DNA of 64,000 nucleotides. Source: Aquificaceae bacterium (GTDB lineage Bacteria; Aquificota; Aquificia; Aquificales; Aquificaceae). The translations under genes and the position numbers were made by a program. Shown one piece after another: positions 121 to 26,601 of the stretch (the first letter of the stretch is position 1; each line of letters begins with the position of its first letter). The stretch spans positions 1 to 64,000 of the forward strand of contig JALWVU010000055.1 of the NCBI GenBank assembly GCA_027079305.1, written 5' to 3'. The notes below the pieces were generated by a model. That model saw nothing but the letters and a program-made list of their open reading frames with translations. It did not search any database and was not told the origin of the DNA.

Positions 121-2227
121 GGCACCTGGCACACTCAGGGCTCGGGGAAATCCCTTACTATGCTCTTTTATACAAAGAAAGCTCTCAGGGAGCTTGAGAA
201 CCCGCTGATAATCTTTATAACCGAGCAGAAGAGAGCTTGACGAACAGCTTCACGATACCTTCAAGGAGCACATAGGGACCGTAGAGAGAGCAGAGTCGAT
301 AAAGGACCTTAAAGAAAAGCTCGGAGCCAAGAGCGGGGGAGTTCTTTTCGTAACGATACAGAAATTCTCAAAAAGGTTGGAAGAGCTTGTCCCTATAAAC
401 GAAAGGGAAGATGTGATAGTGGTTGCGGATGAAGCCCACAGGAGCCAGTACAGAGAGCTTGCACAGAACCTGAGGATAGTCTTGCCAAGGGTGAGCTTTA
501 TGGGTTTTACCGCTACCCCTATAGAGCTTTCCGACCGTTCAACGACCGCGGTGTTCGGAAGTTACATAAGCATCTACCCTATGGACAAGGCGAGAAGGCA
601 CGGCGTAGTTGTTCCCATAATGTACGAGAGCAGATTATCAAAGCTCCACCTCACCAATGAATTTATAGATGAAGAGTTTGAAGAGCTGGAGGAAGAGACG
701 AGCGATGAACAGAAAAGGAAGCTTTTGAGGAAGCTTGAGAAGATAGTTCTTAGCTCAGAGGATAGGCTAAGGAAAATAGCTCAGGACATAGTGGAGCACT
801 TTAACAAAAGGGACAGGGAGTACAGAGGAAAAGGTCTAATAGCGACCATTACAAGAAGGGTTGCAGTGAAGCTGTATGAGGAAATCAAGAAGATTCCCAA
901 CGCTCCTTCCGTAGAGGTGGTCATATCCGGAAGCAAATCAAGGGATGAAGACATATTCAAACCACACATAAGGAGCAGAAAGGAGCTAAAACGGCTCGAG
1001 AACGATTTTAAAGACTCGACGAAGGACCCTAAGCTTGTAATAGTAGTTGATATGTGGCTTACGGGATTTGACGTTCCACCTTTACACGTTATGTACGTTG
1101 ACAAGCCCATGAAGGGGCACACCCTCTTTCAGGCTATAGCGAGGGTGAACAGGGTTTACCCAGGGAAACCTTCAGGTCTTATTGTTGATTACGTAGGCAT
1201 AACCGATGACCTTGCAAAAGCCCTCAGTATATACGCAAAGGAAGATATTGAGAACACAGTAACCAATATTGAGAAGATAGTTGACGAACTGAAAGAACGC
1301 TATGATATCGTTTCCTCAATACTCAAAGGTGTAAATTTTGATGCAAACAACCAGATAGAATTAATTAAAGCTTATGAGAGACTGATTGAGGATGAGGGGA
1401 AGAAAAGGAACTTCATAAAAAATAGCACTTACCTTAAGAAGCTTTACAGAATAGCTTCTCACCATCCCGAAGCTATAAGGATTAGAGATGAGATCAACTT
1501 TTTCAACAGAGTAAGAAGGATGCTCTTAACTCTTGGTAGGAATGGAGGATCTCGTAGCAGGGAGAAGGAAGAGATAGAAAAAGAATTCCATGAGCTCATA
1601 TCAAAGAGCATAATCGCTGAGGAGCCTATAGACATATTCTCCCTCCTTGGAAAGGAGAGAGGAGAACTGACAATATTTGATGAGGACTTCATAAGAAAGC
1701 TGAGAGAGAGTGAGTACAAGAACTTCGCCATGGATGTGCTGTCCAAGATACTTAGTGACCAGCTGAGGGTATTTACTCAAAGAAACCCCAAAAGATACAA
1801 AGGGCTCGTTGAGAGATTAAAGGAGATTCTTGATAGATACCACAAAAGACTTATGACAAGTGCTCAAATAATTGAGGAGCTTGTAAGACTTACGGAGGAA
1901 CTAAAGAAAATCTATGAAGAAGAAAAGTCATTAAACCTCTCAAGCTTTAGCACACTGATTTACGACTTCTTATCCGAATACATGGAGGACGAAGAAAAAT
2001 TGAAAGACGTATCCTCCACCCTTGAGCAGGAGCTTGAGCCAATAGTTAACTCCCCGGAATGGTATCTAATCCCAGAAAAGTTAGCGAGGGCAAGAAGTAT
2101 AACTAAGAGTGTTTTAAGGGAATCCTTCGGCTACAAAAAGGCAAAAGAAATTTCAGAAGAGCTAATAACTTACCTTAGGCTTTACCATTCCCCAGAGTTA
2201 TCAGAGTACAGGAATTTTAAAATTTAG
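121..2227 (+). pseudogene. hsdR: type I restriction enzyme R subunit (hsdR), 5'-truncated and frameshifted
   Basis: HsdR is the ATP-dependent DNA translocase and nuclease of type I restriction systems. Homology starts at the Walker A region (GTWHTQGSGKSLTM, 121-162) and breaks at a TGA (238-240). It resumes in another frame from about 233 (ELDEQLHDTFKEH), so there is a one-base shift near 229-235. The long second piece keeps motif II (DEAHRS), motif III (GFTATP), motif VI (QAIARVNRVYPG) and a DUF3387-like C-terminus. An isolated open stretch from TTG 377 gives 616 residues. The N-terminal nuclease domain is absent, and no hsdM or hsdS is in view. Base composition is visibly AT-richer than the rest of the window. 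The shift could be real decay or a sequencing error, but the missing N-terminus argues for a dead gene. Confidence 0.85.
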
Positions 2228-23952: not shown

Positions 23953-25302
23953 TTATTTTCCTATGCAAAACCTCGAGAATATACTTCCAAGAACGTCTTC
24001 AGTAGTTATATGCCCCACTATCTCACCCAAGTAATCCGCCGCCTCCCTTATGTCGAGCATGGCTATCTCTGGGCTTATGTCCTCCTTCTCGTATTTATCC
24101 CTAAATCTTTCAAGAACTTCCTTGGACTTCCTGAGAAGCTCCTCGTGCCTGACCGAAACATATACGTTTAATCCTTCTTGGACTACCAAACCAGCTTTTC
24201 TAAGAATTTCTTCTTCAAGGTCTTTTAGTCCGTGTCCTGTAAGGGCGCTAACCTTTATTATAGAATGTCCCTCGAAAATTTCAAGAGGTAGGGGGGCTTC
24301 CCCCAGATCTATCTTGTTGATCACGACTATGGTATCTCTGTCCTTCACCTTCTCGTAGATCTTCAGATCCTCCTCCTTAACGCCCACGGAGCCGTCAAGA
24401 ACGAAGAGAACTACGTCCGCCTCCTCTATCTTCTTCACACTCCTCTCTACGCCTATCTTCTCCACGGGGTCCTTTGCATCCCTTATGCCCGCTGTATCCA
24501 CGAGCACCACGGGTATGCCCTTTATGTTCAGCGTTCCCTCTATGTAATCCCTCGTTGTTCCTTCTATGTCAGTAACTATTGCTCTCTCTTCCCTGAGAAG
24601 GGCGTTGAAGAGGGAAGACTTTCCTACGTTGGGCCTTCCAACTATCGCCAGCCTCATGCCCTCTCTCAGAAACTTCCCTGTTTTTGCGGTCTTGAGGAGC
24701 TGGTCTATACCTTCCAGAATCCTCTCCACCATGCTGAGGACCTGTTCCTTTGTTAAGGTGGGGATGTCCTCCTCGGAAAACTCTATGTCCGCTTCTATGT
24801 AGGCGGAAAGCTCTAAAAGACTTTCTCTTAAGGAGTTTACATACTTACTCAGCTCTCCTTTGAGCTGGCGTATGGAAGCTTTCCTTGCAAGCTCGGTCTT
24901 TGCGGTGATCAACTCCGCGACCGCCTCCGCCTGGGCGAGGTCGAGTTTGCCGTTAAGGAAGGCCCTCTTTGTAAACTCTCCTGGTTCCGCAAGCCTGCAT
25001 CCTGCCTTGAGAAAGAGATCGAGGGCTTTCTTCAGTATCAGAGGATTTCCGTGTAGGGACAGCTCTATCATATCTTCTCCGGTGTAGCTTCTGGGAGCTT
25101 TGTAGTATATGAGGATGCCTTCATCTACTATCTCTTCCTTTTCATCCACAAGGGTTCCAAAGTGGGCAAATCTGGGTTTTATCTGGGACCTCGTCCTGAA
25201 AAACCTCCTGGCTATGTTGAGCACACCTTTGCCGGAAAGCCTTACAACTCCTATGGCGCTTTCTCCAAAGGGGGTTGCTACCGCAACTATGGGATCTTTC
25301 AT
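23953..25302 (-). CDS. mnmE: tRNA uridine-34 modification GTPase MnmE
   Basis: With MnmG it installs the cmnm5 group at U34 of tRNAs reading two-fold codons, including tRNA-Leu(UAA). 449 residues: N-terminal folate-binding dimer domain, G domain inserted in a helical domain with G1 [16 protein letters not shown] (G3) and NKID (G4), and the essential C-terminal CIGK. Starts 29 bp from, and divergent to, tRNA-Leu(UAA). Confidence 0.97.
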
Positions 25303-25315
25303 GGTTGGGCTTAAT

Positions 25316-25326
25316 TAAAATATATT
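25316..25326 (+). promoter_or_regulatory. -10 region of tRNA-Leu
   Basis: Two overlapping candidates: TAAAAT (25316-25321) and TATATT (25321-25326). They predict transcription starts at about 25328 and 25333, that is, at or within about 4 nt of the mature tRNA 5' end. The same AT-rich gap must hold the mnmE promoter. Confidence 0.5.
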
Positions 25327-25331
25327 CTTGC

Positions 25332-25415
25332 GGGGGTATGGCGGAACTGGCAGACGCAGCGGACTTAAAATCCGCGGGCCGTAAGGCCGTCCGGGTTCGA
25401 CTCCCGGTACCCCCA
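25332..25415 (+). tRNA. tRNA-Leu (anticodon UAA)
   Basis: 84-nt class II tRNA. Acceptor GGGGGTA/TACCCCC, D-arm GGCGGAACTGGCAGACGC, anticodon stem GCGGA/TCCGC with loop CTTAAAA (anticodon TAA), long variable arm, and T-arm CCGGG-TTCGACT-CCCGG. Discriminator A; CCA is not encoded. The D-arm and leucine-type variable arm agree with Leu. Followed 10 nt later by trm1. Confidence 0.95.
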
Positions 25416-25425
25416 TGAGAAAAGA

Positions 25426-26601
25426 ATGAAAATAATCCAAGAAGGTAAAGCCAAAATACATGTCCCAGAGATAAGAGAGATAGTCTCCTCGGACATGCCC
25501 GTCTTCTACAACCCTAAGATGAGGGTCAACAGGGACCTCGCTGTCCTGGGTCTCGAGTATCTTTGCAGGAAGCTCGGACGGGAGCTCATGGTGGCGGACC
25601 CACTCTCCGCAAGCGGGATAAGGGCGATAAGGTTCCTGAAGGAGACCTCCTGTGTGGGGAAGGTCTTCGCCAACGACATAAGCGAAAAGGCTGTGGAGAT
25701 AATGAGGGGGAACTTCAGGCTCAATGAGATCCCGGAGGAGAGATACGAGGTTCACAGGGAGGATGCCAACTTCTTTATGAGGAAGAGCTGGGGTTTCGGC
25801 TTCGACTACGTTGACCTGGATCCTTTCGGGACGCCCGTTCCCTTCGTAGAGTCCGTAGCCCTTGGTATGAAAAGGGGAGGTATTCTGAGCCTCACCGCCA
25901 CGGACACCGCACCCCTATCGGGAACATACCCCAAGACCTGCGTAAGGAGATACGGAGCTAAACCTCTGAGAAACGAGTTCAAGCACGAGGTAGGGATAAG
26001 GATTCTCATCAAAAAGGTTATAGAGCTCGCCGCCCAGCACGATATAGCCATGATACCCATCTTTGCCTACTCCCACCTTCACTACTTCAAGCTCTTCTTC
26101 GTAAAAGAGAGGGGTGCAAAGCTCACCAACTCCCTGCTTGATCAGGTGGGATACCTGCTTTACTGCTTTAATTGCATGAACCGCGAAGCGGTCTTCGATC
26201 CTTTAAAGATAAAGGAGCGCTGTCCTCTGTGCGGGACCAGGTTCAGTCTCGGTGGTCCCATGTGGCTCGGCAAGCTCTGGGAGGAGGAGTTCACCGATTT
26301 CCTCTACAGGGAAGCCCATGAGAGGGAGGAGATCTCGAAGGAGACCAAGAGGATCCTCTCCCTGATAAGGCAGGAGTCCGGGCTCCAGACGGTGGGCTTC
26401 TATATGGCCTCCAAGCTAGCGGAGAAGGTGGGGATCCCCCAGCAGCCCCCTATAAAGAAGGTTCTGGAGTTTTATGAGGGTGTGAGGACACACTTTGAGG
26501 GAGACGGCTTCAGGACATCTCTTCCCCACGGGGAGGTTTTAAGGCGGTCTGAGGAGCTTAGGGTTATAATAGAACGGCGTTTGAAAGGAGGGGCGCCATG
26601 A
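25426..26601 (+). CDS. trm1: tRNA (guanine26-N2)-dimethyltransferase Trm1
   Basis: SAM-dependent N2-methylation of G26 in tRNA. Trm1 is mainly archaeal and eukaryotic, but the Aquifex enzyme is known and also acts on G27. 391 residues; VFYNPKMRVNRDL, DPLSASGIRAIRFL (SAM site), DLDPFGTPVPF and a zinc-binding CFNC...CPLC set are present. It begins 10 nt after tRNA-Leu, so it is probably transcribed with it. Ends in an ATGA overlap with the isomerase gene. Confidence 0.95.
   Translation: MKIIQEGKAKIHVPEIREIVSSDMPVFYNPKMRVNRDLAVLGLEYLCRKLGRELMVADPLSASGIRAIRFLKETSCVGKVFANDISEKAVEIMRGNFRLNEIPEERYEVHREDANFFMRKSWGFGFDYVDLDPFGTPVPFVESVALGMKRGGILSLTATDTAPLSGTYPKTCVRRYGAKPLRNEFKHEVGIRILIKKVIELAAQHDIAMIPIFAYSHLHYFKLFFVKERGAKLTNSLLDQVGYLLYCFNCMNREAVFDPLKIKERCPLCGTRFSLGGPMWLGKLWEEEFTDFLYREAHEREEISKETKRILSLIRQESGLQTVGFYMASKLAEKVGIPQQPPIKKVLEFYEGVRTHFEGDGFRTSLPHGEVLRRSEELRVIIERRLKGGAP

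What the first reader, a model, noticed from the sequence alone, without database searches (positions are those of the whole stretch)
25303..25426. tRNA-Leu(UAA) with almost no 5' leader, 10 nt before trm1 and divergent from mnmE
The predicted start is at or within about 4 nt of the mature tRNA 5' end, so little or no RNase P processing would be needed. Aquificales are known for the minimal protein-only RNase P (HARP). The same transcript continues into trm1, a tRNA methyltransferase, so a tRNA-mRNA dicistron cut at the tRNA 3' end would create the trm1 mRNA 5' end. MnmE, which modifies U34 of exactly this tRNA class, starts 29 bp away on the other strand.
Basis: partly seen in the sequence, partly recalled or inferred. 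Interest (0 to 1): 0.55.

Follow-up and report, generated by a model that had tools for sequence, protein, structure and literature searches.

The report
Base before tRNAs tracks RNase P
The short-leader tRNA gene itself is ordinary for its bacterial family, but checking it showed that the sampled relatives using an RNA-free enzyme to trim tRNAs usually have an A just before the cut, where those using the RNA enzyme mostly have a T, which suggests that swapping an enzyme rewrote its cutting sites across whole genomes.

Summary
The sequence facts hold: tRNA-Leu(UAA) at 25332-25415, 10 nt before trm1, 29 bp from divergent mnmE. The genome has HARP (protein-only RNase P) and no RF00010 match. The leader is predicted, not measured: the best -10, TAAAAT, top-scoring in 8 of 15 orthologous loci, implies 3-4 nt. 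This is not special: in this genome tRNA -10 boxes lie a median 11 nt upstream. Across genomes, leader length does not separate the two enzyme types.

Testing the HARP idea gave a sharper result. In 9 HARP genomes (two families) the base before the tRNA is A in 225 of 254 tRNAs (76-100% per genome); in 8 RNase-P-RNA genomes it is A in 48 of 240 and T in 144. The signal is confined to -1, holds in tRNA tandems and with every common discriminator base. In tRNA-His it sits at -2 (A in 9 of 9, T in 6 of 6). Best reading: HARP substrates carry a cleavage-site A, as reported for plant PRORP. The window's tRNA-Leu is an exception (C-1).

The parts
25332..25415 (+). tRNA-Leu(UAA), 84 nt, CCA not encoded, discriminator A73, A26, G27
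   Evidence: ARAGORN; Rfam covariance-model match; position check
25316..25321 (+). Predicted -10 hexamer TAAAAT, 10 nt before tRNA G1 (predicted leader 3-4 nt)
   Evidence: best -10 score in the 60 nt upstream; same hexamer and spacing top-scoring in 8 of 15 orthologous loci
25321..25326 (+). Alternative -10 hexamer TATATT, 5 nt before G1 (would give a leaderless or truncated start)
   Evidence: second score; present at distance 5 in 6 of 15 orthologous loci
25319..25324 (-). Candidate mnmE -10 (TATATT on the minus strand), 16 nt before the mnmE ATG; overlaps the tRNA -10 elements, so the two divergent promoters may share one AT-rich core
   Evidence: minus-strand scan
25331..25331 (+). Base -1 of tRNA-Leu(UAA): C, one of 7 non-A cases among 43 non-His tRNAs of this genome
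25426..26601 (+). trm1, tRNA (G26/G27) dimethyltransferase, 391 aa, starts 10 nt after the tRNA
   Evidence: ORF; Pfam PF02005 7.6e-129; tRNA-Leu upstream of trm1 in 15 of the 30 trm1 loci
23953..25302 (-). mnmE, tRNA U34 modification GTPase, divergent, 29 bp from the tRNA
   Evidence: ORF; Pfam MnmE_helical and TrmE_N

Best explanation
The locus is a normal Aquificaceae tRNA gene with its own promoter, a predicted 3-4 nt leader and a protein gene directly behind it; the primary transcript is most likely a tRNA-Leu-trm1 dicistron opened at the tRNA 3' end, while HARP still removes the short leader. [quoted passage not shown] Mechanism proposed: HARP measures from the tRNA elbow but holds the cleavage-site nucleotides only loosely, so an A at -1 sets the register or speeds cleavage; after HARP replaced the ribozyme in the ancestor of families f1 and f3, selection changed -1 from U to A across the tRNA set. 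Shown here: the sequence bias, its position, its place at -2 in tRNA-His, and its match with the enzyme type. Inferred: that HARP itself prefers A, the single replacement, the transcription start, and the processing of the dicistron.
For: HARP and RNase P RNA are complementary in the phylum: HARP over the cut-off in 56 of 108 genomes, 50 of f1 and 6 of f3; RF00010 in 49 of 108, in f2, f4 and f5 only (scored with stricter filters); no genome has both over the cut-offs, 3 have neither. Base -1 is A in 225 of 254 tRNAs of 9 HARP genomes (76-100% each) against 48 of 240 (12-31%) in 8 RNA-enzyme genomes, where T is 144 of 240 (first count, with two double entries). No overlap between the 9 and the 8 genomes. 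Information is 1.15 bits at -1 and 0.01-0.10 at -2 to -10 in HARP genomes, with local A background 0.30. Not a promoter effect: tRNAs within 40 nt of an upstream tRNA show 38 of 44 A against 16 of 83. Not avoidance of pairing with N73: with U73, 53 of 57 are A. tRNA-His, which keeps a coded G-1 and is cut one base earlier (recalled), has A at -2 in 9 of 9 HARP genomes and T in the 6 of 8 other genomes whose tRNA-His was in the sample. Literature: A-1 gives the fastest cleavage by human mitochondrial RNase P and a similar gain for AtPRORP3, A. thaliana nuclear tRNAs mostly have A-1, and many bacteria and archaea have U-1 (PMC12630138 section 18); PbHARP shows some miscleavage at the neighbouring upstream site (PMC9051087 passages).
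Against: f1 and f3 may share one HARP acquisition, so the bias could be one historical event; the counts are not independent trials. Hydrogenobacter HARP (Hth1307) cleaved non-native pre-tRNAs, among them a yeast pre-tRNA-Phe carrying the native -1 and +1 bases, about 60-fold more slowly than the native one (PMC10652100 section 8), so A-1 is not sufficient. No HARP kinetics with -1 variants were found. 29 of 254 tRNAs do without A-1, including the tRNA-Leu of this window (C-1); tRNA-Asp and tRNA-Gln are non-A in 5 of 8 each. In human mitochondria U-1 is commoner than A-1 although the protein-only enzyme is faster on A-1. No transcription start was measured. In 12 of the 17 genomes only part of the tRNAs was sampled.
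Confidence: 0.66

Rival explanations
1. The A-1 pattern is lineage history without function: after loss of the ribozyme, for which U-1 is common, the position drifted once in the f1+f3 ancestor and was inherited.
For: f1 and f3 may represent a single transition; HARP over the cut-off was found in no other family of the phylum.
Against: Relaxed drift would go towards background (A 0.30, T 0.30), not 89% A. The state is kept across eight genera and most isoacceptors, and in tRNA-His it sits at -2.
Confidence: 0.15
2. tRNA-Leu(UAA) here is truly leaderless: TATATT is the -10, RNA polymerase starts at G1, HARP is not needed for this tRNA, and therefore -1 is free to be C.
For: TATATT scores almost as well as TAAAAT (7.3 against 7.57). 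Base -1 is C or T in all 8 orthologous loci with TAAAAT as top hexamer at distance 10, 6 of which also have TATATT at distance 5, and A in the other 7 (Fisher P 1.6e-4 without correction for relatedness).
Against: 2 of the 8 non-A loci lack TATATT at distance 5, and one locus has TATAAT at distance 10 with A-1. Over the sampled HARP genomes small -10 distance does not go with non-A: at distance 9-10, 25 of 26 are A; at 8 or less, 11 of 12.
Confidence: 0.15
3. A-1 is a transcription signal (initiating purine or discriminator element), not a processing signal.
For: -10 boxes are close to the tRNAs in f1 (median 11-13 nt in 6 of 7 f1 genomes) and bacterial transcripts often start with A (recalled).
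Against: tRNAs inside tandems have the same A (38 of 44). The fraction of A does not fall or rise with -10 distance (0.83-0.96 over the distance bins). In tRNA-His the A is one base further out.
Confidence: 0.04

Closest known systems
HARP (homolog of Aquifex RNase P; PIN_5, PF08745; TIGR03875)
   Same: The genome carries one (TIGR03875 4.4e-71; PF08745 8.7e-71; solved relatives 8ssf, 7f3e, 7og5 and others); no RF00010 match; beside an RNA ligase gene, a neighbourhood described for many HARP genomes (PMC12153264 passages).
   Different: An A-1 preference of its substrates was not found in the HARP passages that I could search.
Eukaryotic PRORP substrates with A-1
   Same: A at -1 raises the rate for human mtRNase P (2.4-fold over C-1) and AtPRORP3 (about 3-fold), and A. 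thaliana nuclear tRNAs mostly have A-1 (PMC12630138 section 18).
   Different: PRORP and HARP belong to distinct PIN subgroups and protein-only RNase P evolved twice (starts of the abstracts of PMC8266387 and PMC10941002 as listed); in the human mitochondrial genome U-1 is commoner than A-1.
U-1 and the A248 contact in bacterial RNase P RNA
   Same: The 8 RNase-P-RNA genomes of the phylum show U-1 in 144 of 240 (60%), like E. coli (about 40% of pre-tRNAs not U, PMC10465520 passages).
   Different: HARP genomes have T at -1 in 19 of 254.
Leaderless tRNAs of Nanoarchaeum equitans (no RNase P)
   Same: tRNA promoter placed close to the tRNA 5' end (recalled for Nanoarchaeum).
   Different: Aquificaceae have HARP, tRNA tandems, and -10 boxes that mostly place the start some nt upstream; the HARP review makes the same point for Aquifex (PMC10941002 section 14).

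Membership tests
Leaderless tRNA genes (Nanoarchaeum type) | Start at G1 for all tRNAs and no RNase P in the genome | tested here: not met
   HARP present; tandem tRNAs 7 and 16 nt behind another tRNA; -10 distance median 11 nt
Leaderless tRNA genes (Nanoarchaeum type) | Start at G1 for tRNA-Leu(UAA) | tested here: inconclusive
   Two overlapping -10 candidates, TAAAAT favoured; no 5'-end data
HARP-only genome | HARP over the curated cut-off | tested here: met
   PF08745
HARP-only genome | No RNase P RNA or rnpA | tested here: inconclusive
   RF00010 gives no match in G000, and all 49 matches among 108 genomes of the phylum lie in f2, f4 and f5; other RNase P RNA models and rnpA were not searched
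tRNA-mRNA dicistron | Protein gene directly behind the tRNA with little room for a promoter | tested here: met
   10 nt gap; gap of 8-12 nt in 11 of 15 orthologous loci, 320-325 nt with another ORF in 3, not measured in 1
tRNA-mRNA dicistron | One transcript, cut at the tRNA 3' end | not testable with these tools
   needs RT-PCR or RNA-seq; RNase Z was not searched
[quoted passage not shown]
   tRNA-Leu(UAA) of the window has C-1; 36 of the other 42 non-His tRNAs of this genome have A-1

The most novel reading that the evidence does not exclude
Protein-only RNase P imposes A at the cleavage-site nucleotide, and it did so twice: eukaryotic PRORP with plant nuclear tRNAs, and HARP with Aquificota tRNAs. 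When HARP replaced the ribozyme, the -1 base of almost every tRNA gene was rewritten from U to A, so the enzyme type can be read from the DNA alone, and tRNAs that keep a non-A -1, such as this tRNA-Leu, are candidates for transcripts that bypass RNase P.
Probability: 0.5. Interest if true: 0.78.

Novelty: new variant of a known kind. Interest (0 to 1): 0.6.

Why it matters
How HARP, a 23-kDa PIN nuclease, chooses its cut is open; the papers I saw test elbow binding, leader length, acceptor-stem length and CCA. A -1 signature seen in nine genomes is a direct, cheap prediction for kinetics. It also gives an example of enzyme replacement leaving a base-level mark on the tRNA genes of a genome, and a way to ask from sequence which RNase P does the work in organisms that carry both kinds, such as HARP-bearing archaea.

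Tried and rejected
Leaderless tRNA as a special feature of this gene: rejected as a general claim because short leaders are common in this genome and tandem tRNAs need cutting. Leader length as a HARP trait: rejected; the two f3 genomes and the g10 genome, all with HARP, have median distances of 15-19 nt, overlapping the RNA-enzyme genomes, and the genome-level test gives P = 0.08 although the pooled test gives 2e-9. A-1 as promoter effect, as avoidance of N73 pairing, or as composition: rejected. Non-A -1 as a marker of very short leaders in general: not seen; it holds only among the tRNA-Leu(UAA) orthologues. Trm1 acting on G26 of the tRNA before it: rejected, the base is A26. The generic sigma-70 scan found nothing, so all -10 statements rest on a recalled hexamer weight matrix. 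Two tRNAs (one in G035, one in G080) were entered twice as far as those calls covered their genomes; the -1 counts are corrected, the others carry them. Rows left out of the -1 counts: the 15 tRNA-His (9 and 6), reported on their own. Only tRNAs lying in fetched loci were used: nearly all of G000, G001, G035, G080 and G109, part of the other 12 genomes. In one search two tRNAs with too little upstream sequence were set apart (1 of 2 A). The downstream-ORF count used tRNAs with at least 260 nt of downstream sequence, only 2 of them from G000.

Full report
What is there. ARAGORN places one tRNA in the window, tRNA-Leu with anticodon TAA, at 25332-25415; the Rfam tRNA model agrees. The 29 bp between it and the mnmE start codon read GGTTGGGCTTAATTAAAATATATTCTTGC, and 10 nt (TGAGAAAAGA) lie between A73 and the trm1 start. 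Pfam names trm1 and mnmE clearly. The window is the start of contig C55 of a 2.01 Mb genome in a family with 64 held genomes. Of 23 public loci with a related Trm1, 22 are labelled Aquificaceae, Aquificota or Aquifex and one Nanoarchaeota.

The leader. No start site can be measured here. Two overlapping -10 hexamers are possible: TAAAAT, 10 nt before G1, and TATATT, 5 nt before G1. In the 15 trm1 loci that carry the tRNA upstream, TAAAAT at distance 10 is the best hexamer in 8, six of which also have TATATT at distance 5; of the other seven, six have their best hexamer 9-14 nt away and one is ambiguous. TAAAAT is therefore the more likely box, giving a leader of 3-4 nt with the usual 6-7 nt from box to start (recalled rule). 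On the minus strand a TATATT 16 nt before the mnmE codon overlaps these boxes, so the two genes may share one AT-rich core.

Is it special? No. In this genome the best -10 lies 8-16 nt before the tRNA in 33 of 41 first-in-unit tRNAs, against 18% in dinucleotide shuffles; the median is 11 nt. Five of the six other sampled f1 genomes have similar medians (11-13 nt), but the g10 genome and the two f3 genomes have 15-19 nt and the RNase-P-RNA genomes 14-17.5 nt, so leader length overlaps between enzyme types. Protein genes directly behind tRNAs are also common: 88 of 212 in HARP genomes and 49 of 242 in the others. tRNA-Leu(UAA) stands upstream of trm1 in 15 of the 30 trm1 loci, 14 of genus g1 and one of g2; three of the g1 loci have a 65-aa ORF in between, which has no Pfam match (one of the three scanned). 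The other 15 loci show no tRNA-Leu there; in one of them (L078) the 5' part of trm1 is missing.

The enzyme. HARP was found over the cut-off in 63 of 64 family genomes. In the phylum, HARP over the cut-off occurs in 56 of 108 genomes (50 of f1, 6 of f3) and RF00010 in 49 of 108 (f2, f4 and f5 only); none has both and 3 have neither, G055 of f1 and G083 of f2 among them. The RF00010 search over many genomes used stricter filters that can lose weak matches. This agrees with published work on Aquificales (PMC4227106 section 25; PMC10941002 section 14). In this genome HARP overlaps a convergent RNA ligase gene.

The -1 base. While comparing leaders I saw that the last base before the tRNA differs between enzyme types. 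I compared 9 HARP genomes (f1: one each of g1, g2, g3, g4, g6, g9, g10; f3: two of g22) with 8 RNase-P-RNA genomes (f2: four; f4: one; f5: three). tRNA ends were set by ARAGORN and then fixed by acceptor-stem and T-loop geometry; in the five genomes where this could be checked, 210 of 210 rows (two of them double entries) agreed with the covariance model. After removing the two double entries, A stands at -1 in 225 of 254 tRNAs of HARP genomes and in 48 of 240 of the others, where T has 144. The lowest HARP genome has 76% A, the highest of the others 31%. In HARP genomes the relative information is 1.15 bits at -1 and 0.01-0.10 bits at -2 to -10 (before that correction).

Controls. tRNAs that follow another tRNA within 40 nt, and so hardly have a promoter of their own at that spot, show the same (38 of 44 against 16 of 83). 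With U73, where A-1 could pair, A-1 is still 53 of 57. The A fraction is 0.83-0.96 in every -10 distance bin. tRNA-His has a coded G at -1 that stays on the mature tRNA (recalled); there -2 is A in 9 of 9 HARP genomes and T in 6 of 6 others, two of the eight others having no tRNA-His in the sample. So the A follows the bond that is cut, not the tRNA body and not the promoter.

Reading. The simplest account is that HARP works better, or more exactly, on a substrate with A before the scissile bond, and that the tRNA genes adapted when HARP took over from the ribozyme, for which U-1 is common. Eukaryotic PRORP, a separate invention, shows the same taste: A-1 is cleaved fastest by human mtRNase P, with a similar gain for AtPRORP3, and A. 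thaliana nuclear tRNAs mostly have A-1; human mitochondrial tRNAs, however, have U-1 more often than A-1 (PMC12630138 section 18). Against a strong claim: f1 and f3 may go back to one event, and Hth1307 cleaved foreign pre-tRNAs, one of them with the native -1 and +1 bases, about 60-fold more slowly than its native substrate (PMC10652100 section 8), so A-1 is at most one determinant. I found no statement on A-1 in HARP substrates in the passages or sections seen of PMC8266387, PMC9051087, PMC10652100, PMC10941002, PMC8405995 and PMC12153264, nor a paper on it in the listings. These papers were searched by words, not read whole, and the first HARP paper and the AtPRORP3 paper are not held, so it may be in print.

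Back to the window. tRNA-Leu(UAA) is one of 7 non-A cases among 43 here: C-1. Among its 15 orthologous loci, C or T goes with the TAAAAT-distance-10 promoter in 8 of 8 and A with other promoters in 7 of 7. I leave it as a testable minor reading.

Verdict. The reported feature is real and ordinary. The -1 signature that came out of checking it is, as far as I could search, a new correlate of protein-only RNase P in bacteria and makes HARP substrate choice directly testable.

Noticed in passing
L052:406-1503 (+) and 1474-2070 (-): HARP of this genome overlaps, tail to tail, a gene for an RNA ligase (RNA_ligase and Ligase Pab1020 C-terminal region in Pfam), matching the HARP-ligase linkage reported in PMC12153264 (passages).
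   Followed up: partly
L058, L059, L060, between tRNA-Leu and trm1: A 65-aa ORF with hydrophobic stretches sits 10 nt behind the tRNA and before trm1 in three g1 genomes; the L058 copy has no Pfam match.
   Followed up: partly
window 25316-25326: Candidate -10 elements of tRNA-Leu (+) and mnmE (-) overlap in a 29-bp divergent intergenic region, a possible bidirectional promoter.
   Followed up: no
G000, G035, G001 and G109 tRNAs: CCA is encoded in 20 of 44 (G000) and 10 of 43 (G035) tRNAs but in 32 of 41 (G001) and 42 of 43 (G109); CCA slows one HARP about 10-fold in vitro (PMC10652100 section 8), so the order of 5' and 3' processing may differ between these genomes.
   Followed up: no
RNase-P-RNA genomes, position -2: Position -2 is mostly G or A in the RNase-P-RNA genomes (0.40 and 0.35; 0.30 bits) but carries almost no information in HARP genomes (0.04 bits).
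   Followed up: no
L109: A contig labelled Nanoarchaeota encodes a Trm1 41% identical to that of the window.
   Followed up: no
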